From NCBI GenBank assembly GCA_902774185.1, contig CACYHE010000014.1, positions 1 to 44,725 of the forward strand: DNA of 44,725 bases, read 5' to 3'. This document shows, piece after piece, positions 2,540 to 44,459 of this stretch. The stretch comes from an uncultured Bacteroidales bacterium (lineage in GTDB: Bacteria; Bacteroidota; Bacteroidia; Bacteroidales; Paludibacteraceae). A model generated the notes under the pieces. It was not told the DNA's origin. It was given only the letters and a program-made list of their open reading frames with translations, and did not search any database. Positions within the stretch are counted from its first letter, which is position 1, and each line of letters opens with the position of its first letter. A program made the position numbers and the translations under genes.

Positions 2540-2576
2540 GTTGAAAGTGGAAAGTTGAAAGTTGAAAGTTGAAAGT
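2540..2576 (+). repeat. Heptad array GTTGAAA in an intergenic gap
   Basis: About five 7-base units (GTTGAAA, one GTGGAAA) begin directly after the antiporter TAA and reach to within 10 bases of the next ATG. The array fills almost the whole intergenic gap, in sense orientation to both genes. Confidence 0.92.
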
Positions 2577-2584
2577 TAATGGTT

Positions 2585-3427
2585 ATGAAAAAAGTATATG
2601 TATTTCTTGCGGCGGTGCTGAGTGTTACTGCCGTCATGGCTCAAGAGAAGAGTGATCCATTAGCAACCGGTTTAGGCGGTGTGGCAACGGTAGTAGGTGA
2701 AACGCAAACCGCGACGGACAGTTTGGTGAGCGTTCCGGTAGAGAATGAAAGCACAAAGGAGGTGCCGTTATGGAAACAGAAATTGTACTACGGGTATAAT
2801 TTCGACATCTATTTTCACCACAACACCAAGCAGGGCACGAAGGAGAACGGTTGGTCGATCGCCATCGAGCCGGAGTTGGGTTGGAAGTTAAAAGAGCGTA
2901 TCTATTTAGGTATGCGTGTTGCCGGAGCGTATCAAGACTCGTACACGACCTATTCGTATGAAGGTTTGGACGGAAAGACCTATTCGCAGGACTTGCGTGT
3001 GGTGAACGGATCGTGGTCCGTGACGCCGTATATGCGGTATCGTCTGAAGACGCTTTTTGACGGAAAGTTAGGTATCTGGATGGAGGCGCACTTATACACC
3101 GGCATGGAGTTTCCGCGTGTAAAGAACGGTACGATCCAAGGCACCGATTATGAGGGTTTACGGCACAGTGTGACCTACGGCGCCCAGTTATCACCGGTGA
3201 TCACGTATCAGTTCAGTAAGAAACGGAGTTTCCAGATCTTCTTCTCGATTATGAGTGTGGGTTACAGCGGCCAGGCAAAGTTCTATCAAGACCCGACAAC
3301 CGGAGCACGGCATACCGAGTACACGAACGATGTGATTGTGTTCTCGGGTAAACTGAAGAATTTGTTAGCCAACCAGTTCACGCCCGGTTTGTACGGACTG
3401 AAATTCGGTGTACAGAAGAGTTTCTAA
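2585..3427 (+). CDS. Predicted outer-membrane beta-barrel protein
   Basis: A 280-residue protein with a Sec signal peptide (MKKVYVFLAAVLSVTAVMA, cut before QEKS), a Thr/Ser-rich stretch to about residue 55, then alternating polar/hydrophobic strands such as KLYYGYNFDIYFHH, RIYLGMRVAGAY and SWSVTPYMRYRL. It ends in ...FGVQKSF, and a terminal Phe is the usual outer-membrane barrel signal. I do not recognise a family. ATG 2585 is preferred over 2579 because it gives a standard signal peptide. The downstream TamB-like gene starts inside its last codons (20-base overlap), so the two are probably translated together, which suggests an envelope role. Confidence 0.75.
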   Translation: MKKVYVFLAAVLSVTAVMAQEKSDPLATGLGGVATVVGETQTATDSLVSVPVENESTKEVPLWKQKLYYGYNFDIYFHHNTKQGTKENGWSIAIEPELGWKLKERIYLGMRVAGAYQDSYTTYSYEGLDGKTYSQDLRVVNGSWSVTPYMRYRLKTLFDGKLGIWMEAHLYTGMEFPRVKNGTIQGTDYEGLRHSVTYGAQLSPVITYQFSKKRSFQIFFSIMSVGYSGQAKFYQDPTTGARHTEYTNDVIVFSGKLKNLLANQFTPGLYGLKFGVQKSF

Positions 3428-6400
3428 ATTATTATGGAAGATCCCGCTTCGATTGGTTGAGATCATCGTGGGGCTGGTATTACTACTGTTGATTGCAGTG
3501 GTATGTGTGATCTATGTTCCTTCGTTCCGTAAAGCAGCGCTGAACAAGGGTATCTCTATCGCCAATGAGCAGACGGACTATGATATCGAATTGGGAGAGC
3601 TCTATCTCTCGCCGTTTCACCATTCGCCGATGGTGCTTTATCGGGCTTACAAAGGGCAGGAAGACCTGCCGCTGGAGGTACAGATAGACCGTTTGTTTGT
3701 CGGCCATCGGGGACAAGACACCTTAGTTTACGTACACGCGTTACGCCTGAAGGCGGTGGTTAGAACGAGTCAAATTTCAAATTTCAAATCTCAAATTTTA
3801 AACACTCCTATCGAAGTAGAGCAGTTGTATCTGGAGAATACGGTTTTTCATTCGGATAGTTTGATTGCGTCGGTAGGTATTGATGCGAGGATAGGATTGT
3901 TAGATGTACGTAGTCCGCAACTGAATATTGCGCAAGGTAAATATCCCTTGCACGGTCTTCGTTTGCACGGCGCTGAGGTAGCGATTGACTTACGCGAGAC
4001 GCCTCCGGACACAACGGCACAGGATAGTGAGACGCCCCCTATGCTGATGGCGTTTGAGGTGCCAGACGGAGATATTCGGAATCTGCGATTCCGGTTAACT
4101 CCGTTAGGTATCGACATAAGCACCCGTTCGTTGGTAACCAATGTGTTAGCGGACGTAGGAGCGAACCTGTATGATGCCCGAAATATCGATATCGGAGGGT
4201 TACGTTTCGGTATGGGTGACCTGTCTATTCCTGCAGACACAATCTACGGCAATGCGTCCGTCAATTTGGCCAATAACCTGATTACGAGCAAGGGATTGCA
4301 TGTTCGTTCCGACGAGATGGGTGCGAAAGCAGACCTGTATGCGACGCAGATGAACCTTGAAACGATGCGTGTAGAGGTGACCGGCGATGCGGAGTTCCAA
4401 GGCAGCAAGGCCAAGTTGCGTGCCATGTACGACATCGACGATGAGAAGTATGACGCGAAGGTGCATATCGACCGTGTGGACTTGAGTCCTTTCTTACAGG
4501 ACTCTACCCCATTATCCCTTGCCGGAGATATCGAAGCAACGGGTAAAGGTATTGACCCGAAGCGAGCGATGCGTTCGCATATCAAGCTTAATCTGGACGA
4601 AGCGATCTACGGTAACTACGACGTCTCCCATACCTCACTGGATGCAGCAACCGACAGTGCGCTATCCGTAGCACTTTCGATGCCCGGGTTGCAGGTAGAT
4701 ATCGCCTCTCCAATGCCGCTTTTTGATTTGATTGACCGGATATCGCCGTTAGTAAACACGGTGAGCGATTCGGCCGTGCTCCATGCACTCACTTCGTTGG
4801 AAGACTTGACGGTCTTAGACACGATACGACACAAGATACCGGCTATCGATGCCGCTATCACGCTGAGCAAAGGCAGTCCGGTACAAGCATTCATCGACAG
4901 TACGGGTTTGGATATCGAACAGGTGTTACTGGCACTCCGCTCCGATTCGCTTCGCACGGATCTGGCGCTGGATGTAGCAACCAATGAGACGCAACAGACA
5001 CTCCGTTTGCCTGCAGCCAAGGCTTCGTTGAAAGTGGGCATGGAAGAAGGAACAACGAATGTAGCGCTAGGGGCGGACACGCGTCTCACAGACGGTTTGA
5101 TGAGTGCCTATGACCTTTGTTCCGATATAGGTTTCCGCATGGATGTGACACGTTCCGGAAAAGCGTTGTACGGGGACGGACGAATCACCTTAGACAGCCT
5201 TGCTTATCAGAATACGGAACTGGGTAACCATGCCGTTGACCTTCGTATTTTGCCTTCGCAGGAACACACGAACGCGATACGTGCCGATGTACAGTTGGAT
5301 GATATCCCGTTGGAACTGGTGAACAGTTTTGTGACGCTGACGGATATTGATCTAGCAGGAGCGATACGAGCGTCGGCTTCCGTGGACGGTTTACCGGCTA
5401 AAACAGATATATCCGCGGAGGTACAACCGATCGGTGTTCGGGCGAAATACGTTCCTTATGAGATCGGTATCCGTTTGGGAGAGACTCCTATTATCATGCA
5501 GCATAATCATGTGGGCCTCAACGGATTACCTATCTACATGGTTGACAGTACGTTCTTGGCATTATACGGCGGTTTGGACCTGGAAGAGATGCGTCTGGAC
5601 ATCACGCTGGAGGCGGACAGTTTTGCGCCGGTTAAGTTGACGAAAGGCGGTCCGTTCCCGGTTTATGGTGAGTTAGCGACCGATCTGCACGGTCGTGTAA
5701 CGGGTCCGCTGGACAGCATCGTGGCGGATGTGGATCTGACCTTGCTTCCTGTGACCGATATCACCTACCCTATTGATAAGAAGAACTTAGCACAAGTCAA
5801 ACCGCACGGCACCGTTTCCGTGCATTGTCCGGTAGCCGCTATCGATTCGTTACGTCTTGGAGGTCGCATCAACGTGGATGACGGATTTATTCGTTATTCG
5901 CCTAAACTCTACCCCGTTATGCCGTTCCATGTCGATTCGGGCAGTCATGTTGCTTTCAACGGTCCGATCGGTCAGACGCGGTTAAACGTGTCCGCTTCGC
6001 AGCGGGTGAAAGCCGACGTTGAATCGGACGATCAGGATACGCGTCGGGTTGATTTCACAACCGGCGTACGGGTAAACGGCGTCTTGGATTCAATCGGTTT
6101 GAAGAGTATCGGTTTCTTCCTGGAAGCCCCTGAGGACGAGGCTATTACACGGGAGTTAGAGTCGGTAGATGAAGAGACACGCGAAGGTCTCGCAGCTACG
6201 CTGCTGGCGACGGGTATGTATGTAGGCGAGAGTAACGATGCGGTAGAGCGCGACGGTTATGCCCTATCGTCCATCTTGAACAGTCGTATCAATGCAGCGA
6301 TGGCGAACTCAAAGATCGGTAAGTTCATGGACGTAGATATCAGTAGTGCCCAAACAACCCACGCGTCAGGAAAGACGAACGATATGAATATATCGATCAG

Positions 6401-8551: not shown

Positions 8552-8568
8552 AAGAAAGGACAACCAGT

Positions 8569-8895: not shown

Positions 8896-8908
8896 GTACT
8901 AACAAAAC
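8891..8908. other. Perfect 7-bp inverted repeat before serS
   Basis: GTTTTGT, loop ACTA, ACAAAAC. It directly follows the rpmA terminator and precedes the serS upstream array. It may be an operator or mRNA hairpin; function unknown. No TAnnTTTG box was found in this gap. Confidence 0.5.
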
Positions 8909-8936
8909 TAGGAACCTAGGAGACTAGGAACTTAGG
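8907..8936 (+). repeat. 8-bp tandem array (CTAGGAAC type) upstream of serS
   Basis: Units CTAGGAAC, CTAGGAGA, CTAGGAAC, TTAGG sit 16 bases before the serS ATG. Confidence 0.85.
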
Positions 8937-8952: not shown

Positions 8953-10266
8953 ATGTTAACATTAAAACAAATTTATGATGATAAGGCTCGTGTGATAGCG
9001 GGTCTGGAGAAGAAACATTTTGCGGGAGCAGCCGAGGCTATCGAAGAGGTACTGCGTCTGGATGGCGAGCGCAAGAGTGCGCAGCAAGCCAAAGATGCAG
9101 CCTCAGCACAGATGAATCAGATCAGCAAGTCCATCGGTATGCTCATGGCGAATGGCGAAAGGGAAAAGGCGAATGAAGCCAAGGCACAGACGGGTGCATT
9201 GAAGGCACAGATCGCTGAGTTTGACGCGAAGATGAGTGAGGCTGAGGAGGCACAGACGAAGTTGCTGCTTACGATCCCGAACGTACCCTACGACATTGTG
9301 CCGGAAGGCAGTTGTGCAGAGGATAACTTAGTGGTTAAGAGCAACGTACCTCACCATGGCGGTGACACCGTTGGTACATGGGTTGGCGAAGTGAATAACG
9401 ATGAGGCAAAGTTACCGCACTGGGAGTTGGCCAAGAAATACAACCTGATTGATTTTGACCTGGGTGTGAAGATCTCAGGTGCAGGATTCCCTGTATATAT
9501 CGGTCAAGGTGCCCGTCTGCAACGTGCGCTGATTAATTTCTTCCTGGCAGAAGCGAACAAAGCCGGTTACACGGAGATTATGCCACCGACGGTAGTGAAC
9601 GCTGCGTCGGGTTACGGAACGGGTCAGTTACCGGACAAGGAAGGTCAGATGTATCACTGCGAAGTAGATGACCTGTATCTTATTCCAACGGCAGAGGTGC
9701 CTGTAACGAACCTGTATCGCGATGTGATCATCGACGAGGATAAGTTACCTATTAAGAACTGCGCTTATACGGAGTGTTTCCGTCGTGAGGCAGGGTCGTA
9801 CGGTAAGGATGTACGCGGTCTGAACCGTTTGCACGAGTTCTCGAAGATCGAGATCGTACGTATCGACACGCCGGAACATTCGGACGCCAGTCACAAAGAG
9901 ATGTTGGAGCACGTAGAGGGACTGTTGCAGAAGTTGGAACTGCCCTACCGTATCCTGCGTCTGAGCGGCGGTGATATGAGTTTCACGGCTGCGTTGTGCT
10001 ATGACTTTGAGGTCTATAGCGAGGCACAACACCGTTGGTTGGAGGTATCGAGTACAAGTAATTTCGACACCTATCAGGCAAATCGTCTAAAATGTCGTTA
10101 CCGTCGTACGGAGGACAAGAAAGTGCAGTTATGCCACACGCTGAACGGATCCGCTTTAGCTCTGCCGCGTATCGTGGCTGCGCTGTTGGAAAACAACCAG
10201 TGTGAAGAAGGCATTCGTATTCCGAAGGCTCTTCAACCCTATTTCGGAGATGATATGATTCGCTAA
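8953..10266 (+). CDS. serS: Seryl-tRNA synthetase
   Basis: A 437-residue class II aminoacyl-tRNA synthetase that charges tRNA(Ser). Residues 1-~105 form the N-terminal helical arm that grips the tRNA long variable loop. The catalytic domain follows with TAEVPVTNLYRD, motif 2 (ECFRREAGSYGKDVRGL) and motif 3 (NGSALALPRIVAALLENNQ). Length is normal. The tip of the arm (about residues 65-75, MANGEREKANE) is encoded by a 7-base periodic DNA stretch (9147-9175) but looks length-conserved, so the enzyme is probably active. Its TAA shares an A with the ATG of the next gene, so it heads a serS-permease-panB transcript. Confidence 0.97.
   Translation: MLTLKQIYDDKARVIAGLEKKHFAGAAEAIEEVLRLDGERKSAQQAKDAASAQMNQISKSIGMLMANGEREKANEAKAQTGALKAQIAEFDAKMSEAEEAQTKLLLTIPNVPYDIVPEGSCAEDNLVVKSNVPHHGGDTVGTWVGEVNNDEAKLPHWELAKKYNLIDFDLGVKISGAGFPVYIGQGARLQRALINFFLAEANKAGYTEIMPPTVVNAASGYGTGQLPDKEGQMYHCEVDDLYLIPTAEVPVTNLYRDVIIDEDKLPIKNCAYTECFRREAGSYGKDVRGLNRLHEFSKIEIVRIDTPEHSDASHKEMLEHVEGLLQKLELPYRILRLSGGDMSFTAALCYDFEVYSEAQHRWLEVSSTSNFDTYQANRLKCRYRRTEDKKVQLCHTLNGSALALPRIVAALLENNQCEEGIRIPKALQPYFGDDMIR
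9147..9175 (+). repeat. Intragenic heptad-periodic stretch in serS
   Basis: Four consecutive 7-base units related to GGCGAAT (GGCGAAT, GGCGAAA and two variants). They lie in the tip of the tRNA-binding coiled coil. This is weaker than the other arrays and could be partly chance. Confidence 0.55.
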
Positions 10267-11237
10267 TGACGCGAAACGCCTCCATATTCACAGGACTTGT
10301 ATTATTGCTGCTGCTGCTAATGGGAATCAACATATGCAGCGGCAGCATATGGTTATGGCCATTCGGTGAGTTAAGTCCGATGGAGCAGCAGATATTGCAT
10401 GCAATCCGTTTGCCGAAGGCGTTGACGGCTTTATTGGCCGGTGCCGCTTTGTCCGTATCGGGTTTGATTATGCAGACCTTGTTCCGCAATCCCTTAGCCG
10501 GTCCGTACACCTTAGGCGTAAGCTCGGGTGCCAGTTTGGGTGTGGCGTTGCTGACGATGCTATCAACGGTTAGCGGATTAGCGGTTAGCGGGTTAGCGGT
10601 CAGTATTCCTATTGCAGCCTGTATCGGTGCAACTTTGGTGTTGCTGTTGGTGCTGGCGGTAAGCAAACGGGTGACGAGTAATGTGAGTCTGTTGATCGTA
10701 GGTCTGATGTTCGGTTCCATCGCAGGAGCATTGGTAAGTCTGCTGCAGAATTTCGCGAACCCGGACGCGTTGAAGTTATTCATTGTATGGACCTTGGGTT
10801 CGTTGAGTAGCGTCAATTGGCAGGACATGCAGCTGTTAGTGCCGATATTAGTTGCAGGAACGGTGTTTGTGCTGCTAAGTTTGAAACCGCTGAACGGTCT
10901 GCTGTTAGGTGAAGACTACGCACGGGGTTTGGGGATACACGTAGCGCGTACGCGTTTATATATTGTATTAGCGACGGGATTATTAGCAGGCGGAGTAACT
11001 GCTTTCTGCGGTCCAATAGCGTTTATCGGTGTTGCCGTTCCGCATATCGCGAGAGGGATCTTCAAGACCTCTAACCATCGCGTGACGATACCGGCAAGTG
11101 CGCTGATAGGTGCTTGTATGTTGTTGGTTTGCGACATCCTTTGTTCGCTCTCCGTACATACGCTACCGATATCGACGGTGAGTGCGCTCTTTGGTGCCCC
11201 GATTATTATCTGGATTATTCTTAAAAACAAAAAATAA
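10266..11237 (+). CDS. FecCD/BtuC-family ABC transporter permease
   Basis: A 323-residue inner-membrane permease of the iron-siderophore/cobalamin import family, with about nine or ten transmembrane helices. The block RNPLAGPYTLGVSSGASLG and the late GPIAFIGVAVPHIAR are diagnostic. Family members pair with an ATPase and a periplasmic binding protein, but neither is adjacent: serS lies upstream (1-base overlap) and panB downstream (1-base overlap). It must use partners encoded elsewhere or be a remnant. Residues ~101-112 (VSGLAVSGLAVS) come from a 7/8-base repeat array. Substrate cannot be assigned. Confidence 0.9.
   Translation: MTRNASIFTGLVLLLLLLMGINICSGSIWLWPFGELSPMEQQILHAIRLPKALTALLAGAALSVSGLIMQTLFRNPLAGPYTLGVSSGASLGVALLTMLSTVSGLAVSGLAVSIPIAACIGATLVLLLVLAVSKRVTSNVSLLIVGLMFGSIAGALVSLLQNFANPDALKLFIVWTLGSLSSVNWQDMQLLVPILVAGTVFVLLSLKPLNGLLLGEDYARGLGIHVARTRLYIVLATGLLAGGVTAFCGPIAFIGVAVPHIARGIFKTSNHRVTIPASALIGACMLLVCDILCSLSVHTLPISTVSALFGAPIIIWIILKNKK
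10568..10602 (+). repeat. Intragenic 7/8-bp array in the permease gene
   Basis: Alternating GGTTAGC and GGATTAGC-type units (15-base double unit), encoding two copies of SGLAV in a hydrophobic segment. The frame is kept because 15 is divisible by three. Confidence 0.88.
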
Positions 11238-12073: not shown

Positions 12074-12078
12074 TAAAT

Positions 12079-14223: not shown

Positions 14224-14303
14224 TTGAGAGTTGAAAGTTCTTATCTCCTTTGGAGAACGATCTAAAGGTATGGAGAGTTGAGAGAAGTAGAAAGTAGAAA
14301 GTT
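14224..14303 (+). repeat. Composite array (GTTGAGA/GTTGAAA heptads around a 31-bp core) between galK and galM
   Basis: This gap is made wholly of GTTGAGA/GTTGAAA-type heptads, a non-repetitive core with the hairpin TCTCC-TTT-GGAGA, and further AAGTAGA-type heptads up to the galM ATG. Bases 14236-14288 are identical to 29045-29097 inside rimO. Confidence 0.92.
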
Positions 14304-15314: not shown

Positions 15315-15390
15315 AGTTTAAAGTTGAAAGTTTAAAGTTGAAAGAAGTTTTATAGTTGAAAGTTTACAGTTGAAAGTTGAAAGATGAAAG
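15315..15390 (+). repeat. GTTGAAA array between galM and the GH2 gene
   Basis: About ten heptads (GTTGAAA with GTTTAAA and GTTTACA variants) run from the galM stop across the first possible GH2 start codon. The ATG at 15384 is itself part of a GATGAAA unit. Confidence 0.92.
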
Positions 15391-17888: not shown

Positions 17889-17930
17889 CCGCGCAATAAT
17901 CACGCAATAATCACGCTATAATCACCCAAT
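17881..17930 (+). repeat. 11-bp tandem array after the GH2 gene
   Basis: About four 11-base units (CGCAATAATCA and variants). The first unit supplies the last codons and the TAA of the GH2 gene. The rest of the gap to 18027 shows nothing recognisable. Confidence 0.88.
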
Positions 17931-18026
17931 ACACATCCGTCGCAGGCCTTGAATTTGAAGGGTTCCGAGAGGATGCATGGTTGAAAAGCGATAAACATAA
18001 ATCAAATTTCTCCAAGTTGGAAAATT

Positions 18027-24110: not shown

Positions 24111-24179
24111 CTAGAGGGGCTAGATATTCTAGAGGCTCTAGAGGCTCTAGATGTTCTAGTTGTTCTAGAGGTTCTAGAT
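24111..24179 (-). repeat. 9-bp tandem array CTAGAGGCT between the MFS gene and susC
   Basis: Eight imperfect 9-base units (CTAGAGGCT, CTAGATGTT and others), each starting CTAG, running up to the MFS stop codon. On the minus strand they would encode LEP/LEH tripeptides, but they lie between genes. All units carry the self-complementary CTAG. Confidence 0.92.
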
Positions 24180-26141: not shown

Positions 26142-26189
26142 GGGAAATTGAAATGTGAAAGATGAAAATTGAAAGGTGAAAGGAAGAAA
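26142..26189 (+). repeat. Heptad array TGAAAGG/TGAAAAT forming the recQ leader
   Basis: Six or more 7-base units of the TGAAAnn type run from just after the expected transcription start to 9 bases before the recQ ATG. Confidence 0.88.
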
Positions 26190-26198
26190 AAATACTAT

Positions 26199-28382: not shown

Positions 28383-28413
28383 TTAAAAATTAAAAATTAA
28401 GAATTAAAAATTC
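28375..28413 (+). repeat. Heptad array AATTAAA between recQ and rimO
   Basis: About five 7-base units (AATTAAA, one AATTAAG) span the recQ stop codon and end 3 bases before the rimO ATG. Confidence 0.9.
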
Positions 28414-29844: not shown

Positions 29845-29852
29845 GGAATTTT
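29830..29852 (+). repeat. 8-bp array GGAATTAG across the rimO stop
   Basis: Three GGAATTAG-type units supply the last codons and the TAG of rimO and end 15 bases before the HU ATG. Confidence 0.8.
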
Positions 29853-36975: not shown

Positions 36976-38788
36976 TCACATATCGATGGAGTTTTCTTCC
37001 CGTCCGGTACTGGATGACATCTCGTTCCTCATCAACCGTAAGGAACGCATCGCACTGGTGGGAAAGAACGGAGCGGGAAAAACCACCCTGCTGCGTCTTA
37101 TTGCCGGTGAGTACCAACCGACAAGCGGTCGTATCTCCAAAGAGACCGACATGACCATCGGTTACTTACCGCAGATGATGCTCTTCCAAGATGACCGGAC
37201 GCTGCGGGACGAAGTGATGACAGTCCTAACTTCAAACGACCTCAAACAACATCAAACGACTTCCAACAACGATGAAGCACGCTTCATCGCTGAGATGGAC
37301 CGAACGATCATCGGTCTGGGTTTCGAGCGCAAGGACTTCGACCGGCCTTGTTCGGAGTTCTCCGGCGGTTGGCGCATGCGTATCGAGTTGGCGAAGATCT
37401 TACTGCGCCATCCCGATCTGCTACTACTGGACGAACCGACCAACCACCTTGATATCGAGTCTATCCAGTGGCTTGAGGATTTTCTGAAAACCAGTCCGTC
37501 CGCCGTGCTCATGGTCAGCCACGACCGCGCCTTCATCGATAATGTATGCGGTCGAACGATCGAGATCACTTTGGGACGTATCTATGACTATAACGTCAAC
37601 TACAGCCGGTTTGTGGAACTACGCAAAGAGCGGCACGAACAACAGGTACGGGCGTATCAGAACCAGCAGAAAATGATTCAGGACACCGAAGAGTTCATCG
37701 AGCGGTTCCGCTACAAAGCTACCAAAGCGGTACAAGTCCAGAGCCGTATCAAACAACTGGAGAAACTGGAGCGACTGGAAGTGGATCTGGAAGATACCAG
37801 CCGTCTTAACCTTCGTTTCCCGCCTGCCCCACGTAGCGGGGACTATCCGATCATCGTCGAAGAGCTCCGCAAAGACTTCGGCACGCATACTGTCTTCCAT
37901 GACGTCACCTTCACCATCAAACGGGGAGAGAAAGTAGCCTTCGTTGGTAAGAACGGAGAAGGCAAAACGACCCTCGTCAAGTGTATCATGGGGCAGTTGG
38001 ACTATATGGGCACACTCAAGATCGGCCATAACGTCAAGATCGGTTATTTTGCCCAGAACCAAGCGGCCTTGCTGGATGAGAACCTGACCGTATTCGAGAC
38101 GATCGACTACGTGGCGGTGGGTGATATCCGCACCAAGATACGAGACATATTAGGTGCTTTTATGTTCGGCGGCGAAGCGTCCGAGAAGAAAGTGAAAGTG
38201 CTTAGCGGCGGTGAACGCAGCCGGTTAGCGATGATACGCTTACTGCTCGAACCCTGCAACCTGCTCATTTTGGATGAACCGACCAACCACCTGGATATGC
38301 AGTCCAAGGATGTCCTCAAAGCCGCTCTGCAAGACTTCAACGGCACCCTCATCTGCGTCAGTCACGACCGGGATTTCCTGAACGGACTGGTAAGCAAAGT
38401 GTATGAGTTCGGTGGCGGTCGTGTCAAAGAGCATCTGGGCGGTATATACGACTTCCTCCGCGCCAAAAAGATCGATTCTCTACAAGAGTTGGAGAAGAAG
38501 AACACAGACCGCTCCGCTGACAGAGCACAGAACACAGACCTGATTACTCCGACTTCCGCCAAACTCGATTATGCGGCACAGAAAGCCTTAGCTGCCGAGC
38601 GACGGAAAAAAGAGAAAGCCATCGCTGAGACCGAAGAGGCCATCGCTGCGTTGGAAGCCCAACAGGCACAGATAGAACAACAACTGGCGGACCCGCAGAA
38701 CCAAACAGCGGAACTGTTTCAGAAATACGAATCGGTTAAACATCAGATAGAACAAAAACTATACGAATGGGAGATCCTAAGCGAATAA
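36962..38788 (+). CDS. ABC-F family ATPase (ribosome-associated)
   Basis: A 608-residue soluble protein with two ABC modules and no membrane domain. It has GKNGAGKTT, FSGGWRMRIELAKILL and LLLDEPTNHLD, then GKNGEGKTT, LSGGERSRLAMIRLLL and LILDEPTNHLD. The linker (VQVQSRIKQLEKLERL) and the C-terminal coiled coil fit ABC-F factors that act on the ribosomal E site. Residues ~91-103 (SNDLKQHQTTSNN) are encoded by four 10-base repeats, where ABC-F homologues I recall have a longer helical segment. A GAACACA array encodes NTDRSADRAQNTD before the coiled coil. It overlaps the transferase gene by 14 bases. Resistance versus housekeeping role is unresolved. Confidence 0.93.
   Translation: MLSVDHISMEFSSRPVLDDISFLINRKERIALVGKNGAGKTTLLRLIAGEYQPTSGRISKETDMTIGYLPQMMLFQDDRTLRDEVMTVLTSNDLKQHQTTSNNDEARFIAEMDRTIIGLGFERKDFDRPCSEFSGGWRMRIELAKILLRHPDLLLLDEPTNHLDIESIQWLEDFLKTSPSAVLMVSHDRAFIDNVCGRTIEITLGRIYDYNVNYSRFVELRKERHEQQVRAYQNQQKMIQDTEEFIERFRYKATKAVQVQSRIKQLEKLERLEVDLEDTSRLNLRFPPAPRSGDYPIIVEELRKDFGTHTVFHDVTFTIKRGEKVAFVGKNGEGKTTLVKCIMGQLDYMGTLKIGHNVKIGYFAQNQAALLDENLTVFETIDYVAVGDIRTKIRDILGAFMFGGEASEKKVKVLSGGERSRLAMIRLLLEPCNLLILDEPTNHLDMQSKDVLKAALQDFNGTLICVSHDRDFLNGLVSKVYEFGGGRVKEHLGGIYDFLRAKKIDSLQELEKKNTDRSADRAQNTDLITPTSAKLDYAAQKALAAERRKKEKAIAETEEAIAALEAQQAQIEQQLADPQNQTAELFQKYESVKHQIEQKLYEWEILSE
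37231..37270 (+). repeat. Intragenic 10-bp array TCAAACGACC in the ABC-F gene
   Basis: Four consecutive 10-base units of the type TTCAAACGAC, in frame within the first ABC module. Confidence 0.9.
38501..38540 (+). repeat. Intragenic GAACACAGA array in the ABC-F gene
   Basis: AACACAGA and GAGCACAGAACACAGA words separated by GCTCCGCTGAC, encoding a polar linker between the second ABC module and the coiled coil. Same word as 30441-30472. Confidence 0.85.
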
Positions 38789-39945
38789 AAGAGGTTGTTG
38801 AATATATTATTCGATGGCTTTGCTATGACAACAGCGAAGCGGCTTCACGGGTGGCCTACTCGACGGACACGAAAGAACTGCTGACGCACGACGTACTCAT
38901 CATCCCGAACGGTCATTTAGGAGATATGATCATCTTACCGGATCTGGGACAAGTGGTGGTGGAGCATCCGGCGAAAGGGAAAACGATCATCCGGACGGAT
39001 ATCGTGTATAACACCTTTTTCTTCATCTCACGTGCCGAAGAGACCTTCAACACCGAGCGGGACGAACACAATCGTTTCCTTGCCAGATACTCCGTTTTGG
39101 GACATAGTAACCGCATGCAGATCCCTCTGCTGGACGAACATGCACGCCTGCTGCTTAAACTGCTGAACGAACCCCTTCCTGAACCCGGTTTCAACCATAT
39201 TTACCTCACCCATGATATCGACACCCTCTCGCAATACCGCCATCTGCGGGGTGCATTGGGAGGTATCCTGCGGGGAAAAGGAAAAACCGTCTTCGCCTCT
39301 TGGCGCGACATACATAACGACCCCGCCTACACCTTCCCGTGGATCATCGAGCAGGACAGGAAAGTGGAAAGGGAAAAGGGAAAAGTGGAATGTATCTATT
39401 TCATCAAACAGACCAAAGGCAAAGGCTTCGACTATCCGCAGTATAGCCTGTTCGGACGGGATTTCAAGCGCGTCAAGAAACTGTTGCAGGATAGCGGTGC
39501 GCAATTCGGAGTGCATGGCAGTTATTACGGCGACCTGCCCAAAGCAGACCTGGCGGGTTCTACCCTGTACCGCACGCATTATCTAAGGATGGGCACTAAA
39601 CTGATGCAAGGTCTGGAAGCTGCCGGTTACACCGATGACTTCACCATGGGTTTTGCCGACGAAGCCGGTTTTCGCCTACAGACCACACGTGCCGTGCGGT
39701 GGATCAACCCCAGAACCCTGCGTCTAACGAATATCACGATGCACCCCCTCATCATCATGGATACCACCCTCAGCAATGAGAACTATATGAACCTGAACGA
39801 AGAGGAAGCGTACTTCCTGTGCGAACAGCTCATCGAGAAAGTGCGTTTACACCATGGGGACCTCTGTCTGCTCTGGCATAATAACAACCTGACACCCGAT
39901 ACCTACCATAAAGCGCTGTATGAAAAGATTATTAATTGTATCTGA
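38767..39945 (+). CDS. Polysaccharide deacetylase-like protein
   Basis: A 392-residue protein without a signal peptide. The N-terminal ~130 residues form a domain I do not recognise. The C-terminal part resembles the polysaccharide deacetylase-like proteins of Bacteroidota glycan loci: YLTHDIDTLSQY carries an HDxD-type metal site, GVHGSYYGDLPK and FADEAGFRLQTTRA follow the expected NodB-like order, and LCLLWHNNNL ends the domain with a conserved His. The reaction on a surface polysaccharide is inferred from neighbours. Residues ~199-208 (KVEREKGKVE) come from an AAAGTGG/AAAGGGA heptad array. The ATG overlaps the ABC-F gene by 22 bases. Confidence 0.78.
   Translation: MGDPKRIKEVVEYIIRWLCYDNSEAASRVAYSTDTKELLTHDVLIIPNGHLGDMIILPDLGQVVVEHPAKGKTIIRTDIVYNTFFFISRAEETFNTERDEHNRFLARYSVLGHSNRMQIPLLDEHARLLLKLLNEPLPEPGFNHIYLTHDIDTLSQYRHLRGALGGILRGKGKTVFASWRDIHNDPAYTFPWIIEQDRKVEREKGKVECIYFIKQTKGKGFDYPQYSLFGRDFKRVKKLLQDSGAQFGVHGSYYGDLPKADLAGSTLYRTHYLRMGTKLMQGLEAAGYTDDFTMGFADEAGFRLQTTRAVRWINPRTLRLTNITMHPLIIMDTTLSNENYMNLNEEEAYFLCEQLIEKVRLHHGDLCLLWHNNNLTPDTYHKALYEKIINCI
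39361..39390 (+). repeat. Intragenic heptad array AAAGTGG/AAAGGGA in the deacetylase-like gene
   Basis: Units AAAGTGG, AAAGGGA, AAAGGGA, AAAGTGG encode KVEREKGKVE in frame. Confidence 0.88.
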
Positions 39946-41092
39946 TCCTCCGGTAGCTCCGGGTTATCTGCCCCGTCTACGCTATCTTTGCGAATACCTC
40001 GTTCGCAAAGGCTATGACGTGACGTGGGTGACCGAAGAAAGAGGAGACATCCCCTTTGACCACACCTACCCGCTCATCACCATCCCGATGTATAGCGGTT
40101 CCAAATGCGACTGGTTCTTCAAATCCGTTTGGACCCTTCTCACCGACTGGTATAATCGCGCCTTTGCAAAAAAGTGTCTTCAATCGTTCAATCGTCAATC
40201 GTTCAATCGTCAATCGTCCAATCGTCAATCATTTGACCTCGTCCTCTGTTCCACCTTCAATGAGGTACCTTTAGGCGCAGCCAAACGGATAGCGGATCAA
40301 CTGAACGTACCGCTCTTCTGCGACATCCGGGACTTGGACGAACAGGTGGACAACAGCCGCTATCAGTACCACCATCAGTCGGGGTGGTTGATGCCTTTCC
40401 GTCGGATCTACCGCGCCGTACATATTCGTCGCCGCAACAAAGTACTGCGTGCAGCTACCGTCGTCACCACCGTCTCCGCGTGGCATCGGGAGTTTATCCG
40501 AACCCTCAACCCCAACACCATCACGATGTTCAACGGGTACGACGAGAAACAGTTCTACCCCAAAGATATCCCTACCGATACCTTCCGTATCACCTATATC
40601 GGTTCGCTCTTCGACTGGCAAAAACCGGCCCTAAACAAAGTGCAAACCATCATCGATGAACTAAACAAATCAAAAATCGTCCAATCGTCAATCGTCCAAT
40701 CGTCAATCGTCCTTGACGTCCATACGCCTCAAAATAACCCCATCCCTTATACCGAGATAGGCGATGCCATCCGACGCAGTTCGATCATGCTGGTACTCAC
40801 CGACACCCATACGCACGGCATGCTGACCACCAAGTTCTTCGAAGCCCTCGGTTGTCAAAAACCCATCCTCTGCGTCCCGTCCGACCAAGGCGAATTGGCG
40901 GAACTCATGGATTGGTCCCATGCCGGACTCGATTCCGATGATTTCGAGCAGATCAAGGCCTTCATCATCGACCGTTATAAGGAATGGCAAACCAAAGGTT
41001 TCACCCGACAAAGCAACCTCTTGTGGGAGATATTATCGCGTGAAGCCCAAAGTGAAGAAATTGAAAAACTAATAAATATCTATCTATCATGA
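39920..41092 (+). CDS. Glycosyltransferase, GT4-like
   Basis: A 390-residue GT-B glycosyltransferase. The N-terminal LLIVSDPPVAPGYLPRLRYLCEYLVRKGYDVTWVTEE is the acceptor-side Rossmann fold. The C-terminal half has ITYIGSLFDWQKP, MLVLTDTHTHGMLTTKFFEALGCQKPILCV (the E-x7-E region of GT4 enzymes) and GELAELM. Two repeat arrays lie in frame: QSFNR pentapeptides near 88-104 and IVQSS repeats near 253-264. Their period is 15 bases, so copy changes would not shift the frame. Its ATG lies 26 bases inside the previous gene. Sugar donor and acceptor are unknown. Confidence 0.88.
   Translation: MKRLLIVSDPPVAPGYLPRLRYLCEYLVRKGYDVTWVTEERGDIPFDHTYPLITIPMYSGSKCDWFFKSVWTLLTDWYNRAFAKKCLQSFNRQSFNRQSSNRQSFDLVLCSTFNEVPLGAAKRIADQLNVPLFCDIRDLDEQVDNSRYQYHHQSGWLMPFRRIYRAVHIRRRNKVLRAATVVTTVSAWHREFIRTLNPNTITMFNGYDEKQFYPKDIPTDTFRITYIGSLFDWQKPALNKVQTIIDELNKSKIVQSSIVQSSIVLDVHTPQNNPIPYTEIGDAIRRSSIMLVLTDTHTHGMLTTKFFEALGCQKPILCVPSDQGELAELMDWSHAGLDSDDFEQIKAFIIDRYKEWQTKGFTRQSNLLWEILSREAQSEEIEKLINIYLS
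40181..40231 (+). repeat. Intragenic CAATCGT(T) array, GT4 gene copy A
   Basis: Alternating 8- and 7-base units CAATCGTT and CAATCGT (15-base double unit, more than three copies) encode QSFNR repeats. Confidence 0.93.
40676..40712 (+). repeat. Intragenic CAATCGT(C) array, GT4 gene copy B
   Basis: The same word family as 40181 in a different frame (AATCGTCC and AATCGTC), encoding IVQSSIVQSS. Confidence 0.93.
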
Positions 41093-42114
41093 AAAAGATC
41101 TTCTTTTCTGTGCTCTGTGTTCTGTGTTCTGTGCTCATTTATGCTTGGAACAGTCCTATACCCGTACCGGACCTGAGCAGTGCCCGTCTGCGTGTCGTAG
41201 CCCAGAACGCTGCCAACTATATCACGAACTTCGAGGCGTCCAATGCGAAAATCAACACGCAAGAAGCGTTCGATACCAAAACCAATAAGATCGCCAATGC
41301 TTTCCTTGCCCTGCAAGCCGATATCGTGGCGATATGCGAAGTGGAAGAGAACGACGAGATATTGGGTTACATCGTCGATGCAATGAACACCATCTACGGT
41401 CAGCAGGTCTATACCTACCTTACCGACGGTCTGTACGAACATGCGAGTGCCGGTAGTTACCAAGCGCTCAAATCCGGCTTCATCTATCGCCAGGACAAAG
41501 TGACGCCACAAGGTTCGATGTCCTCACCGTACTACTCCGGCGAATACAACCATCGCATGCGTATCCAAGCCTTCAAAGAGAAGAGTACCGGTGAGGTCTT
41601 CGTGCTGTCCATGAACCATTTCAAAGCCAAGACCGGTGACTACGAGAACACCCAGCGGCAGAATGCAAATAACCTCATCTCCAAGTTGAATTGGGTCACC
41701 ACCGACCCCGACATCTTGGTCATGGGCGACCTGAACGCATACATGGGCGAAGAACCCATCAACCTTTTGGAAAATGCCGGATACGAAGAACAACTCGTTC
41801 GTTTTGATCCCAATGCCTATACCTATGATTACTACGGCGATCTGGGTATCCTCGATCATTGCATGGCGAACGCTTCGATGGCGAAACAGATCACCGGCGC
41901 TTATGCCTATCATATAAACACAGCCGGTTACTCAAGCTATAAGTATTCCGACCACGATGCCATCGTTGTGGGACTGCGGTTAGGAGAAGATGTAAGCGAA
42001 GGCTTTGTTGTGACACCTACCGAATCGGCAGCACGTAAGATCCTCTATAACGGACAGTTGTATATCGAACTGGACGAACAGTATTTCAATAGCATGGGAA
42101 CCAAGATCCAATGA
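41089..42114 (+). CDS. Secreted endonuclease/exonuclease/phosphatase-fold protein
   Basis: A 341-residue protein with a signal peptide (KKIFFSVLCVLCSVLIYAW) and an EEP-superfamily domain. The motifs are RVVAQNAANY, VAICEVEEN with the metal-binding Glu, LSMNHFKAK with the catalytic His, VMGDLNAYMGEEP (GDxN), ILDHCMAN and YSDHDAIVVGL with the final Asp-His. This resembles secreted nucleases of the ExeM type, so extracellular or periplasmic DNA or phosphoester cleavage is likely. It overlaps GT4 by 4 bases, an odd neighbour for glycan genes. The signal-peptide core is encoded by a CTGTGTT/CTGTGCT array. Confidence 0.9.
   Translation: MKKIFFSVLCVLCSVLIYAWNSPIPVPDLSSARLRVVAQNAANYITNFEASNAKINTQEAFDTKTNKIANAFLALQADIVAICEVEENDEILGYIVDAMNTIYGQQVYTYLTDGLYEHASAGSYQALKSGFIYRQDKVTPQGSMSSPYYSGEYNHRMRIQAFKEKSTGEVFVLSMNHFKAKTGDYENTQRQNANNLISKLNWVTTDPDILVMGDLNAYMGEEPINLLENAGYEEQLVRFDPNAYTYDYYGDLGILDHCMANASMAKQITGAYAYHINTAGYSSYKYSDHDAIVVGLRLGEDVSEGFVVTPTESAARKILYNGQLYIELDEQYFNSMGTKIQ
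41108..41136 (+). repeat. CTGTGTT/CTGTGCT heptad array in a signal-peptide coding region
   Basis: The reverse complement of the GAACACA/GAGCACA word at 30441 and 38501. Here it encodes the hydrophobic SVLCVLCSVL. Confidence 0.9.
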
Positions 42115-42851
42115 TCAGCATCATCATCCCCATATATAACGCAGCCGATTATCTGAGCGCTTGTCTGGATAGTCTTCTGGCGCAGACAGAACATGACCTG
42201 CAGGTGGTGATGGTCGATGACGGTAGTACGGATGCCGGTGTGACGATCGCACAATCCTACACGCAACGCGACCCACGTTTTGTCTTGATCCGACAGTCCC
42301 ATGCGGGTCAGTCCGCTGCCCGGAACAACGGTCTCAAACAGGCTACCGGTTCTTTTATCGCCTTCCTCGATGCCGATGACAGTCTCGCACCCGACTGGTG
42401 TGAACGCCATCTGGCAGCCATCGACGGCGTGGACTATGTCCAGTCCGGATACCAACGAGTCGATAAATCGTCCAATCGTAAATCGTCCAATCGTAAATTA
42501 CCTAAGCATCGTCTCCAATTCACCTCGCCTTGCATGCGTCTGTACCGACGGGAAGCGATAGAAGGGATGACGTTTGCCGAAGGATTTATCTATGAAGATG
42601 TCTTGTGGTCGGTCGATCTATGGATACGAACGGCTTCTTGCCGCCGCATCGACTATGCCGGTTACCGCTACACGCTTAACCCCAAAAGTACCACTGCTGC
42701 ACCTCATCCCAAGGCACAGCAGCGGATCTTACAAGCTTTGCGCAACAAAGCGCACAAGACCTTGTTAGGTAAAAAATGGATCGTCTATTATACCCTCCTT
42801 CGACTCAAGGCCTACTTCATAGCTGAGGGTAAGCGAAATAAGCATAATTGA
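42111..42851 (+). CDS. Glycosyltransferase family 2 protein
   Basis: A 246-residue GT-A fold enzyme beginning MISIIIPIYNAADYLSACLDSLL, with VVMVDDGSTDAG for nucleotide binding, RNNGLKQATGSFIAFLDADDSL with the DxD metal site, and YEDVLWSVDLW, the usual acidic motif late in GT2 domains. Between ~118 and 130 a CAATCGT-family array encodes KSSNRKSSNRK. The shortish C terminus has a basic tail but no transmembrane helix. It overlaps the previous gene by 4 bases and the convergent metallophosphoesterase gene by 35 bases. It ends the polysaccharide block. Confidence 0.92.
   Translation: MISIIIPIYNAADYLSACLDSLLAQTEHDLQVVMVDDGSTDAGVTIAQSYTQRDPRFVLIRQSHAGQSAARNNGLKQATGSFIAFLDADDSLAPDWCERHLAAIDGVDYVQSGYQRVDKSSNRKSSNRKLPKHRLQFTSPCMRLYRREAIEGMTFAEGFIYEDVLWSVDLWIRTASCRRIDYAGYRYTLNPKSTTAAPHPKAQQRILQALRNKAHKTLLGKKWIVYYTLLRLKAYFIAEGKRNKHN
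42464..42499 (+). repeat. Intragenic AATCGTCC/AATCGTA array in the GT2 gene
   Basis: 15-base double units of the CAATCGT family encode KSSNR repeats; third such array within 2.4 kb. Confidence 0.92.
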
Positions 42852-43707
42852 TCTCATCGCCCATGGCAACGGTCATATAGTGTTGCCCTTTCTCATCATC
42901 TTTCGTGGCGTCCAACACCATGTATTGCACGCCTTGGAACGTCACATGTTGCCGTGCATGCTGGTGACCGCTCCATACATACTCCACCCCGTATTTCGCC
43001 AAGGTGTAGGTCAACTCATAGGTCTCCTCCAAGGCATAGTTACTCGTGTGACCTTGCGAACTGTCTAACTTCCACAGATGCGTATGTGTAAATACGATAA
43101 TATGCCGGTATCCCTCTTGACTCTTCTCCGCCAACAGGTCCTTCAACCATTTCGTCTGCTCCGTGCCTAACGAACCTTCCGCACTGTCCAGACATATGAA
43201 CAGGTCCAGTTTCTTATTGCCGTTACGGGTATCGAACCAGTACGCCGAGCTCTTGAAGAACGAACGATAGACTGACCATTGTTTGAAGTAGATATCGTGG
43301 TTACCAGGCGTGATAAACAACGTGTCCGCCTGCGTGCGCGTACCTATATGTAATATACTGTCCGCACACGCGTAGTTCTTCTGCGCATCAATCAAATCGC
43401 CTAAATGCAGCGCCATCTTCGGACCGTTTGCGGCATCGTACTGCGCCACGAAATAATCGAGGTTACGATGCGCTTTCTTAGTGATATGACTGTCCGTGCA
43501 CACATAGATGACATAGTCATCTGCCTGCATATTCAGATGGATATCTCCCACACTGTCGTTATAAGTTTTCGACTGTTGGAAACGCACGTTCACCGTCTCC
43601 CCCTGCGGAGAGAACATGCCTTTCATATCCAATACCGTATCGTCATTCGCGCATGCTGCCAAAACAACCGCAACCGCTATATAGAATATCTTCTTCATAT
43701 CTTTCAT
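42817..43707 (-). CDS. Calcineurin-like metallophosphoesterase, predicted lipoprotein
   Basis: A 296-residue protein with lipoprotein signal KKIFYIAVAVVLAACAND (Cys near residue 19) and all metallophosphoesterase motifs in order: CTDSHI, LGDLID, PGNHDIY, VFTHTHLW and SGHQHARQH, providing the two-metal site. It would hydrolyse a phosphoester outside the cytoplasm; the substrate is unknown. An alternative start is ATG 43698, which gives a cleaner signal peptide. A GTTGAAA array lies directly before its start in sense orientation. Its last 35 bases overlap the GT2 gene on the other strand. Confidence 0.92.
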   Translation of the reverse strand: MKDMKKIFYIAVAVVLAACANDDTVLDMKGMFSPQGETVNVRFQQSKTYNDSVGDIHLNMQADDYVIYVCTDSHITKKAHRNLDYFVAQYDAANGPKMALHLGDLIDAQKNYACADSILHIGTRTQADTLFITPGNHDIYFKQWSVYRSFFKSSAYWFDTRNGNKKLDLFICLDSAEGSLGTEQTKWLKDLLAEKSQEGYRHIIVFTHTHLWKLDSSQGHTSNYALEETYELTYTLAKYGVEYVWSGHQHARQHVTFQGVQYMVLDATKDDEKGQHYMTVAMGDEINYAYFAYPQL

Positions 43708-43745
43708 CTTTCAACTTTCAACTTTCAACTTTCAACTTTCAACTT
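43706..43745 (-). repeat. GTTGAAA heptad array between two minus-strand genes
   Basis: Five GTTGAAA units (minus strand) plus GATGAAA fill the whole gap between the barrel-protein stop codon and the metallophosphoesterase start. Confidence 0.93.
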
Positions 43746-44459
43746 TTAGAACCGATAGGTGAAACCGGTTCTAAACGTCGCTCCGTAGAACGTAGCATCG
43801 AGATGGAACATTCCGGTCGGTTTGCATTGGGCCCCGAACACCAGTCGCCAGTTATCACCTAAATCACACCAAGCCCCGACACCGAAGAGGGGTTGCCACA
43901 TGCGTTCCATCTGGTAGTCATCGATATTACTGAATAGGAAAGAGAGGTTCCAGTTAGTATCCTGCGGACGGCAGAAGACCTCCACCCGGTACAGCAGGTT
44001 AAAGGGTTCCACCACATAGGTGTCGTTCGTATGCCAGTCCCGTTTCCAGTCATCGAACACACGGCCGTACATACCTAAGGTCACAGACACATAATCCATG
44101 CGGTAACCGACACCCAACGCGGCGGTCAGGTCGCCTAATTGATTACGCACAACCGCACGATAGTAAAGGTCCGTCTCGATGAACATCTCACCTACCGGCA
44201 GTTCGAACTTAGGACGAAACTGCAAAGCACCCGAATAGACATTGGCGGACGAAAGCTGCACTTTCGCTTCCATCTCAAAATAGTCGTTGAACGGCAAAAG
44301 AGACTGCACGTCCAAGTTTCCATGATGCCCCCAGGTCTTGTTATAACTGTACTCGCCCATCACCGTCAGACGGTACTCTCGCGTCCCAAATCCCGGTTCC
44401 GCAGCCAACATGCCCACTGCCCCCAGAACACAGAACAAAGAACAAAGATACTTTTTCAT
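43746..44459 (-). CDS. Predicted outer-membrane beta-barrel protein (DUF2490-like)
   Basis: A 237-residue protein with signal peptide KKYLCSLFCVLGAVGMLAAEPG and about ten amphipathic strands (YRLTVMGEYSYNK, YFEMEAKVQL, MFIETDLYYRAVV, WRLVFGAQCK), ending TFRTGFTYRF with a terminal Phe. The pattern suggests a small outer-membrane barrel of the DUF2490 kind, which is tentative. Part of the signal-peptide core is encoded by the complement of the GAACACA repeat (44424-44447). No TAnnTTTG promoter could be placed with confidence upstream. It is probably co-transcribed with the metallophosphoesterase gene behind it. Confidence 0.78.
   Translation of the reverse strand: MKKYLCSLFCVLGAVGMLAAEPGFGTREYRLTVMGEYSYNKTWGHHGNLDVQSLLPFNDYFEMEAKVQLSSANVYSGALQFRPKFELPVGEMFIETDLYYRAVVRNQLGDLTAALGVGYRMDYVSVTLGMYGRVFDDWKRDWHTNDTYVVEPFNLLYRVEVFCRPQDTNWNLSFLFSNIDDYQMERMWQPLFGVGAWCDLGDNWRLVFGAQCKPTGMFHLDATFYGATFRTGFTYRF
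44424..44447 (-). repeat. Signal-peptide heptad array (CTTTGTT/CTGTGTT, minus strand)
   Basis: On the coding strand CTTTGTTCTTTGTTCTGTG encodes the hydrophobic LCSLFCVLG. It is related to 41108-41136. Confidence 0.8.

What the first reader, a model, noticed from the sequence alone, without database searches (positions are those of the whole stretch)
2540..44447. About 29 unrelated short tandem arrays share a 7-base (or near-7) period across the whole window
Arrays lie at 2540, 3771, 8907, 9147, 10568, 12053, 14224, 14528, 15315, 15843, 16078, 17369, 17881, 24111, 26142, 28375, 29030, 29740, 29830, 30441, 37231, 38501, 39361, 40181, 40676, 41108, 42464, 43706 and 44424. The words differ (GTTGAAA, CAAATTT, GTACAGA, CAGTTGT, TCATTGG, AATTAAA, GAACACA, AAAGTGG and others), yet most have period 7, with 7/8, 8, 9, 10 and 11 as variants. 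Different words with one period suggest a mechanism that sets unit length rather than copies one mobile sequence. Heptanucleotide STRR repeats are known in cyanobacteria. I know of no explained equivalent in Bacteroidales, though similar peptides appear in database proteins I recall.
Basis: partly seen in the sequence, partly recalled or inferred. Interest (0 to 1): 0.82.

Follow-up and report, generated by a model that had tools for sequence, protein, structure and literature searches.

The report
Seven-base repeat arrays in rumen bacteria
A rumen bacterium and many of its close relatives carry numerous tiny DNA arrays whose unit is seven bases long whatever the word, a recognised bacterial repeat class that is unusually dense here and often begins right after a gene's stop codon, which makes the genus a good place to ask what sets the seven-base step.

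Summary
The excess is real. TRF gives 55 rows in the window against 5.6 (max 13) in Markov controls; in a 400-kb sample of the same genome, lag 7 gives 93 exact runs against 0.7 expected. TRF supports 24 of the 29 listed places. A 7-base excess is already published for many bacteria, weakly for Bacteroidetes, with a polymerase-slippage hypothesis. Here it marks one rumen Paludibacteraceae genus: 224 arrays, 96 words, 30 species, 0-28 per 100 kb.

New details: one gene gap holds different 7-base words in different species; in gaps of 60-400 nt, 22 of 38 arrays start within 12 nt of the upstream stop codon; genic arrays avoid stop triplets; 15-base (7+8) versions are mostly genic; 11-base arrays are a separate class.

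Against a pure unit-length mechanism, some words and non-repetitive cores recur around the genome (one core at 43 places). Best reading: slippage with a 7-base preference plus copying, filtered by selection. A lead: 32 of 41 genus genomes lack a match to the proofreading part of DNA polymerase I, but that is probably one event and not sufficient. A Y-family polymerase link failed an independent check. An interesting variant of a known phenomenon.

The parts
2538..2577 (+). GTTGAAA array (period 7), overlaps the last bases of the gene ending at 2539 and runs almost to the next start
   Evidence: TRF score 73; gene calls
3770..3802 (.). CAAATTT array, period 7, about 320 nt into the TamB/Omp85-like ORF 3453-7994
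   Evidence: TRF 52; Pfam; place
8908..8936 (.). period-8 array upstream of seryl-tRNA synthetase (8953-10266)
   Evidence: TRF 37; Pfam
9145..9175 (.). weak period-7 array inside the seryl-tRNA synthetase gene
   Evidence: TRF 34
10567..10600 (.). 7/8 alternating array = 15-base unit, inside the FecCD-family gene
   Evidence: TRF 61, period 15; Pfam
14221..14302 (+). dispersed copy: heptamer-like ends around a unique core, in the gap between galactokinase and aldose-epimerase genes
   Evidence: 94% identical to 29030-29112; core exact twice in the window and once at C4
14527..14558 (+). GTTGAAA-like array, period 7, inside the aldose-epimerase gene
   Evidence: TRF 50
15313..15392 (+). GTTGAAA/GTTTAAA array with a GAAGTTTTATA core, from the end of the epimerase gene to the start of the GH2 gene
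   Evidence: TRF 76/96; core at 14 places genome-wide against 3 for the reversed control
15846..15870 (.). weak CAGTTGT array, period 7, inside the GH2 gene
   Evidence: TRF 36
16078..16107 (+). GTACAGA array, period 7, inside the GH2 gene
   Evidence: TRF 53
17881..17984 (-). 11-base array (CGCAATAATCA) that is one end of a dispersed element of about 100 nt; separate class
   Evidence: TRF 74, period 11; homologous copies; 9 matches to its end genome-wide
24111..24184 (.). 9/18/27-base array between the TonB-dependent receptor and MFS genes; not period 7
   Evidence: TRF 71-90
26145..26190 (.). period-7/21 array just upstream of recQ (26199)
   Evidence: TRF 42-71; Pfam
28381..28412 (+). AATTAAA array overlapping the recQ stop codon and filling the recQ/rimO-like gap
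   Evidence: TRF 57; stop within the array; orthologous gaps
29030..29112 (+). second copy of the 14221 element, inside the rimO-like gene
29739..29770 (+). CATTGGT array, period 7, near the 3' end of the rimO-like gene; some congeners carry other 7-base words there
   Evidence: TRF 50; sister-species comparison
29824..29850 (+). period-8 array across the stop of the rimO-like gene
   Evidence: TRF 47
30441..30470 (+). GAACACA array, period 7/14, inside an HU-like gene; followed by CCGATAATGCT, much as at AACACAG arrays of L022
   Evidence: TRF 60; shared flank (window letters)
37228..37270 (+). period-10/20 array in the ABC-F gene, in an indel-variable stretch
   Evidence: TRF 65; ortholog alignment
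38499..38546 (+). ACAGAAC/ACAGAGC units around a dispersed ACAGACCGCTNNGCNGACAGA core, in the ABC-F gene
39359..39390 (+). GGAAAAG array adding 4 residues relative to the congener sequences shown in the alignment
   Evidence: TRF 36; ortholog alignment
40179..40230 (+). 15-base (7+8) array in a glycosyltransferase gene, residues 87-104
   Evidence: TRF 95; alignment; model
40675..40712 (+). 15-base (7+8) array in the same gene, residues 252-265
   Evidence: TRF 76; alignment; model
41107..41136 (+). TCTGTGC array, period 7, in the N-terminal stretch of the endonuclease/exonuclease/phosphatase-family gene
   Evidence: TRF 46; Pfam
42464..42498 (+). 15-base (7+8) array in a glycosyltransferase-2 gene
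   Evidence: TRF 70; alignment
43701..43746 (-). GTTGAAA array (sense) filling the gap from one gene's stop (43746) to the next gene's start (43707)
   Evidence: TRF 85; gene calls
44425..44448 (.). AGAACAA array, period 7, beside the called start (44411) of the gene ending at 43746
   Evidence: TRF 41; gene calls

Best explanation
These are 5-11-base-class simple-sequence repeats with a strong preference for a 7-base step, dense in part of one rumen Paludibacteraceae genus. Most probably (inferred) a replication or repair polymerase re-aligns its primer about 7 bases back on short local homologies and adds extra units. Loops of this size largely escape mismatch repair, while shorter units are corrected (established knowledge; MutS is present). 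Insertions survive where they do least harm: just after stop codons, in gaps between same-direction genes, and in indel-tolerant protein loops, where stop-free words and 15- or 21-base spacing keep the frame. Some families then spread, with non-periodic neighbours, by an unidentified copying route, so words recur within a species. Shown: the excess, the species differences, the location bias, the stop filter, different words in one gap, dispersed cores. Inferred: slippage as the source, the enzyme, the copying route.
For: Lag-7 excess over controls and over other families of the order: 5 runs in 344 kb (20 loci) against 93 in 400 kb. 96 words in 224 arrays. In the recQ/rimO gap the window has AATTAAA, L085 GAGAATT, L096 GTTGATA, L048 GTCGTTR (read by eye), while 9 of 33 distinct congener loci have a gap of 2-4 nt and no array. 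Codirectional gaps of 60-400 nt: 22 of 38 arrays start <=12 nt from the upstream stop, 6 of 38 end within 12 nt of the start, random placement 9.8; 19 of 88 include at least two bases of the stop. Stop triplets in the sense word: 23 of 88 genic against 63 of 88 codirectional intergenic, P=2e-9. Lag-15 arrays: 12 of 17 genic. Genic arrays of the syntenic block are insertions at indel-variable positions. MutS1 over cut-off in 38 of 41 genomes.
Against: Two-copy duplications, expected as slippage intermediates, are scarce: away from other arrays, lag-7 runs of 6-7 show no excess (111 against 98 expected in the own genome, 410 against 430 in congeners) and runs of 8-10 only a small one (21 against 7.5; 77 against 35.5). 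Dispersed cores show that copying contributes. No polymerase was shown to be responsible. Density varies from 0 to 28 per 100 kb between congeners and is overdispersed even among species with the same PolA match pattern (chi2 129, df 25). No within-species length variation could be examined.
Confidence: 0.55

Rival explanations
1. The arrays are mainly parts of small dispersed elements (array plus non-periodic core) copied around the genome, so the common period reflects a few founding families and their mutated descendants.
For: Core ACAGACCGCTNNGCNGACAGA at 43 places genome-wide (up to 2 mismatches; some places adjacent), reversed control 0; window 14221-14302 and 29030-29112 are 94% identical with a third core copy elsewhere; 13 of 95 own period-7 arrays have a dispersed non-periodic match within a 20% sample of the genome against 14 of 285 control places; AAAGTTG is 23 of 95.
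Against: Pooled over eight species 17 of 173 arrays have such a match against 28 of 519 controls, and six of the eight species have 0 or 1 (small samples). Different words occupy one orthologous gap, and 19 of 88 arrays include the local stop codon.
Confidence: 0.25
2. The stop-anchored arrays are functional: a stop-bearing 7-base word repeated three times puts a stop in all three frames, a back-up termination cassette; or they set spacing to the next start.
For: Stop triplets in the sense word of 63 of 88 codirectional intergenic arrays, in the antisense word of 37 of 88; stop anchoring.
Against: 9 of 33 distinct congener loci have a 2-4-nt gap and no array at the one gap examined in detail; 65 of 88 genic arrays of the same period are stop-free; any period not divisible by three would serve.
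Confidence: 0.07
3. Phase-variable contingency loci: gain or loss of one 7-base unit switches genes on and off.
For: A 7-base unit shifts the reading frame, and phase variation is the usual role given to bacterial simple repeats of 1-5 bases (passages).
Against: In the window several genic arrays lie in housekeeping genes (seryl-tRNA synthetase, ABC-F, rimO-like, HU-like). Whether surface genes are over-represented was not tested.
Confidence: 0.05
4. Chance or assembly artefact.
For: The congener records are mostly metagenome-assembled (titles); no reads were available.
Against: Excess far above controls; similar arrays in separately assembled congeners; genic arrays lie in open reading frames.
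Confidence: 0.01

Closest known systems
Long simple-sequence repeats, heptanucleotide class (Mrazek et al. 2007, not read, known here through PMC4679880, PMC4692102 and PMC4060949)
   Same: Period 7 dominant, no expansion of short units; polymerase-contact slippage hypothesis
   Different: Here the class is concentrated in one small-genome rumen genus, is common inside genes, and is stop-anchored in gaps
TAACTGA direct repeats of Beggiatoaceae, cyanobacteria and five Bacteroidetes (MacGregor 2015, PMC4679880)
   Same: Heptamer arrays, mostly intergenic, uneven across taxa, two sets in Paludibacter
   Different: One word, and in the Guaymas Beggiatoaceae genome close to start codons; here many words, closer to stop codons
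GGGAATC / GGGGA(C/T)T heptamers of Xanthomonas and Nostoc (Rehm et al. 2015, PMC4692102); cyanobacterial STRR (recalled)
   Same: Dispersed heptamer arrays whose length and sequence differ between close relatives
   Different: One G-rich word family able to form quadruplexes; here A-rich, many words
Tandem repeats of archaeal Borg elements (PLoS Biol 2023, PMC9879509)
   Same: Independent origins, A-rich, genic copies under a frame filter, some starting within gene ends
   Different: No single unit length there, genic units divisible by three, and the carrier is an extrachromosomal element

Membership tests
Heptanucleotide long simple-sequence repeats | Period 7 in excess of sequence-matched controls | tested here: met
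   93 against 0.7 at lag 7; TRF 55 rows against 5.6
Heptanucleotide long simple-sequence repeats | Short units not expanded in the same genome | tested here: met
   Lags 2-5 zero in the own 400-kb sample, control about 1 each; lag 1 not tested
Heptanucleotide long simple-sequence repeats | Copy number changes by slippage | not testable with these tools
   No reads or second strain; three sister-species pairs at 82-89% identity show replaced words or point changes, no clean unit change
TAACTGA-type heptamers (MacGregor) | One dominant word placed just upstream of start codons | tested here: not met
   96 words in 224 arrays; stop side favoured over start side, 22 against 6 of 38
Dispersed mobile repeat element | Copies share non-periodic sequence | tested here: inconclusive
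   13 of 95 against 14 of 285 controls in the own genome, 17 of 173 against 28 of 519 pooled; one core at 43 places
Phase-variable contingency repeats | Length polymorphism switching a gene | not testable with these tools
   No population data
11-base arrays | Same class as the 7-base arrays | tested here: not met
   9 of 74 genic against 87 of 199 for period 7, P=4e-7; median codirectional gap 571 against 80 nt

The most novel reading that the evidence does not exclude
A lineage-specific change in the DNA synthesis machinery, such as DNA polymerase I having lost its 3'-5' exonuclease domain, sets a fixed 7-base realignment step, so arrays are born at stop codons and loops in one multi-unit event without two-copy intermediates. 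The genus would be a natural mutator for 7-base units.
Probability: 0.12. Interest if true: 0.8.

Novelty: new variant of a known kind. Interest (0 to 1): 0.5.

Why it matters
Why 7 is the favoured unit of longer bacterial repeats has been discussed since 2007 (as cited). A genus in which congeners run from none seen to about 28 arrays per 100 kb, with syntenic genes and a polymerase domain missing in most members, makes that question testable by comparison and by reconstituting the polymerases. Stop anchoring and the 7+8 frame rescue suggest how such repeats enter coding genomes.

Tried and rejected
Control rejected: GTTGAAA read backwards is a rotation of itself, so its 'control' counts are void.

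Period switching between congeners (7 here, 11 in G011 and G009; heterogeneity chi2 132, df 27) looked like one mechanism with a changeable step. Rejected: 11-base arrays differ in location, and some are ends of a dispersed element.

Y-family polymerase as the cause. First look: five species without an IMS match, 4 arrays in 392 kb, against 220 in 1.92 Mb with one; written down as a prediction before test letters were asked for. The three test species without IMS gave 1 array in 68 kb, as predicted. All together: 8 species without, 5 in 460 kb; 25 with, 220 in 1.92 Mb; Mann-Whitney P=0.0015 ignoring kinship. Against: only 4 independent contrasts on the tree, 1.5-2 of them in favour, the rest undecided; and in a second check of 15 further genomes the single one without IMS, that of L079, has 5 lag-7 runs in 22.7 kb, while five with IMS (L088, L089, L091, L092, L095) have none. 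Not upheld.

SbcD: over cut-off in 7 of 41; no relation to density was tested.

Polymerase I: six of 41 genus genomes have an unbroken PolA match, 32 a match split with positions about 320-480 unmatched, three are unresolved (G001, G020, G063). Three split proteins scanned have no exonuclease-domain match at E<=1; the unbroken G011 protein has two weak ones, one over its cut-off. In G007 and G008 the frames are 856 and 888 aa, so loss is less sure there. Arrays: 4 in 345 kb in the six, 221 in 2.02 Mb in 26 split species (P=0.018 ignoring kinship; G063 left out). Five of the six group together in the UvrA tree (G023 not placed), so probably a single event; a lead only. Enzymes and groupings were chosen after the densities were seen.

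A 7k+4 length ladder looked suggestive but is weak and not claimed. The ABC-F model (mean pLDDT 47) is unusable. Rfam: no match at gathering score in the window. Paper search for Paludibacteraceae with tandem repeat: 0 papers. Searches were seen as listings, except the four papers named in the report.
Full report
OBSERVATION. TRF lists 55 rows in the window; 30 order-3 Markov controls average 5.6 (max 13), with 0.8 period-7 rows on average. Exact self-match runs of 10 or more at lag 7 number 9 in the window against 0.05 in dinucleotide shuffles; lags 14, 15, 21 and 30 are also high. The window lies in a 2.19-Mb draft genome. Twenty stretches of 20 kb (400 kb, 18%) give 93 runs at lag 7 against 0.7 expected, none at lags 2-5, 13 at 8, 17 at 9, 9 at 11.

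TAXON. The closest named records are rumen 'Paludibacteraceae bacterium' or 'uncultured Bacteroidales' assemblies (titles). I do not know the genus name.

SPREAD. Twenty loci from other families of the order: 5 lag-7 runs in 344 kb. In 30 species of the genus (2.31 Mb in all) I count 224 period-7 arrays, N-containing, homopolymer and internally repeating units dropped; densities run from 0 to 28 per 100 kb. Samples per species are 16-445 kb, so low counts are imprecise. Lag 11 is the second peak among lags 4-13 (98 arrays; lag 14 is the double of 7); the 7:11 ratio differs between species (chi2 132, df 27).

WORDS. 95 own arrays have 37 words, AAAGTTG 23, AACACAG 7, AAATTTC 7; the genus has 96 words in 224 arrays. 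The frequent words are not especially common as single heptamers (AAAGTTG rank 301 of 1172 classes). Recurrence within a species therefore needs seeding, copying or sequence-specific expansion.

SAME GAP, DIFFERENT ARRAYS. Between recQ (26199-28382) and the rimO-like gene (28417-29844; Pfam), the window has AATTAAA, L085 GAGAATT, L096 GTTGATA and GTTGAAA, L048 and L043 GTCGTTR, L047/L082 GACGATT, L053 an 11-base word (read by eye); 9 of 33 distinct congener loci have a gap of 2-4 nt and no array (37 rows, four of them second copies of one assembly). Near the 3' end of the rimO-like gene L047 and L082 (89% identical DNA) have different 7-base words, whereas L050 and L087 (82%) share one with point changes. 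The third pair compared, L046/L083, has no period-7 array in the block.

LOCATION. By my own gene caller (not a published one; 22% called non-coding), of 224 arrays 25 lie outside the first or last called gene and were set aside; of the remaining 199, 88 are genic by midpoint and 111 intergenic, 88 of these codirectional (by coverage, gives 87 and 112). In codirectional gaps 51 of 88 start within 12 nt of the upstream stop and 21 end within 12 nt of the start, against 29.8 for random placement; in gaps of 60-400 nt 22 and 6 of 38 against 9.8. Called starts are less certain than stops. Nineteen of 88 include at least two bases of the stop codon.

GENIC FILTER. Sense words hold a stop triplet in 23 of 88 genic and 63 of 88 codirectional intergenic arrays (P=2e-9). 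Lag-15 arrays are genic in 12 of 17, against 87 of 199 for lag 7; not all of the 17 show the 7/8 alternation, and four that do are intergenic, so the frame-keeping reading is a tendency. The three window arrays detected at that lag are genic. Alignments with congeners show the genic arrays of the syntenic block as insertions at indel-variable positions. A model of the glycosyltransferase (39920-41092; mean pLDDT 83.5) puts both arrays in less confident stretches, 91-100 (56) and 251-260 (67), but other stretches (11-20, 141-160) are as low; the ABC-F model failed.

KINETICS. Away from other arrays, lag-7 runs of 6-7 (two copies) show no excess, 111 against 98 and 410 against 430, and runs of 8-10 a small one, 21 against 7.5 and 77 against 35.5; the large excess begins at runs of 11, that is 18 nt. 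This fits a length threshold for slippage, or birth in one multi-unit step; I cannot decide.

COPYING. Result against my first model: one search found arrays that share non-periodic cores. Window 14221-14302 and 29030-29112 are 94% identical; the core occurs at three places genome-wide. ACAGACCGCTNNGCNGACAGA occurs at 43 places with up to 2 mismatches, 17 of them exact, reversed control 0. GAGAAGTNNNATAGTNGAAAG occurs at 14 against 3 for the reversed control. Measured blindly, 13 of 95 own arrays have a dispersed non-periodic match in the sample against 14 of 285 shifted control places; over eight species 17 of 173 against 28 of 519. Some of the 13 are shared flanks without obvious tie to the array. 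Copying is real in the own genome, a minority by this test, and probably under-counted because only about a fifth of the genome was compared.

THE 11-BASE CLASS. Nine of 74 genic, long gaps. In the own genome three of the nine detected arrays (window 17892, L031, L033), plus an imperfect copy in L024, belong to a dispersed element of about 100 nt; nine matches to its end are found genome-wide. I treat it as separate.

ENZYMES. MutS1 is over cut-off in 38 of 41 genus genomes, consistent with short-unit repeats being corrected. The Y-family link did not survive the second check (see Tried and rejected). Polymerase I is unbroken in 22 of 24 other-family genomes (the other two, G042 and G050, give only fragments) and in six of 41 genus genomes (G011, G013, G019, G023, G024, G028), while 32 show a match split around positions 320-480 and three are unresolved. 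The own protein has 5'-3' exonuclease and polymerase domains and no 3'-5' exonuclease match (alignment). Arrays: 4 in 345 kb in the six, 221 in 2.02 Mb in 26 split species, 126 in 1.57 Mb without the own genome. Five of the six sit together in the UvrA tree (G023 was not placed), so this is probably one event, and several split species are array-poor (G036 1 in 100 kb, G033 1 in 80 kb, G012 0 in 36 kb). It is a lead, not a cause.

LITERATURE. Mrazek and Huang 2014, PMC4060949 (passages and the first part of section 3.1 read): in Bacteroidetes the 7-base class is the only simple-repeat class scored above normal (0.75). Rehm 2015, PMC4692102 (passages): heptamer excess in many bacteria and the polymerase-contact hypothesis. 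MacGregor 2015, PMC4679880 (abstract, introduction, taxon section). Borg repeats 2023, PMC9879509 (passages). Mrazek 2007 was not read.

VERDICT. A real, strong, genus-restricted case of a known repeat class, with new anatomical detail and mixed evidence on whether unit length or copying dominates.

Noticed in passing
window 14238-14267 and 29047-29076: Identical 30-nt core, once between genes and once inside the rimO-like gene; third copy on contig C4 of the same genome.
   Followed up: partly
window 17881-17984: 11-base array forming one end of a dispersed element of about 100 nt, also in L024, L031 and L033; nine matches to its end genome-wide.
   Followed up: partly
L244:107-2434 (own polA): DNA polymerase I of 775 aa with no 3'-5' exonuclease domain match, a linker in its place; 878 aa in G011 with weak domain matches.
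   Followed up: partly
window 38499-38546 and orthologs: The same variable stretch of the ABC-F gene holds an AACACAG-type element here and, in several congeners, an 11-base CCGACGGTCAA array encoding a repeated peptide.
   Followed up: partly
window 17369-17412: Not an array but a GC-rich inverted repeat (CCCTCTCCC...GAGAGGGAG, by eye), resembling one in the recQ/rimO gap of L045 and L079.
   Followed up: no
genus genomes: SbcD over the family cut-off in only 7 of 41 genomes.
   Followed up: no
window 24111-24184: 9/18/27-base CTAGAGGTT-like array upstream of a TonB-dependent receptor gene.
   Followed up: no
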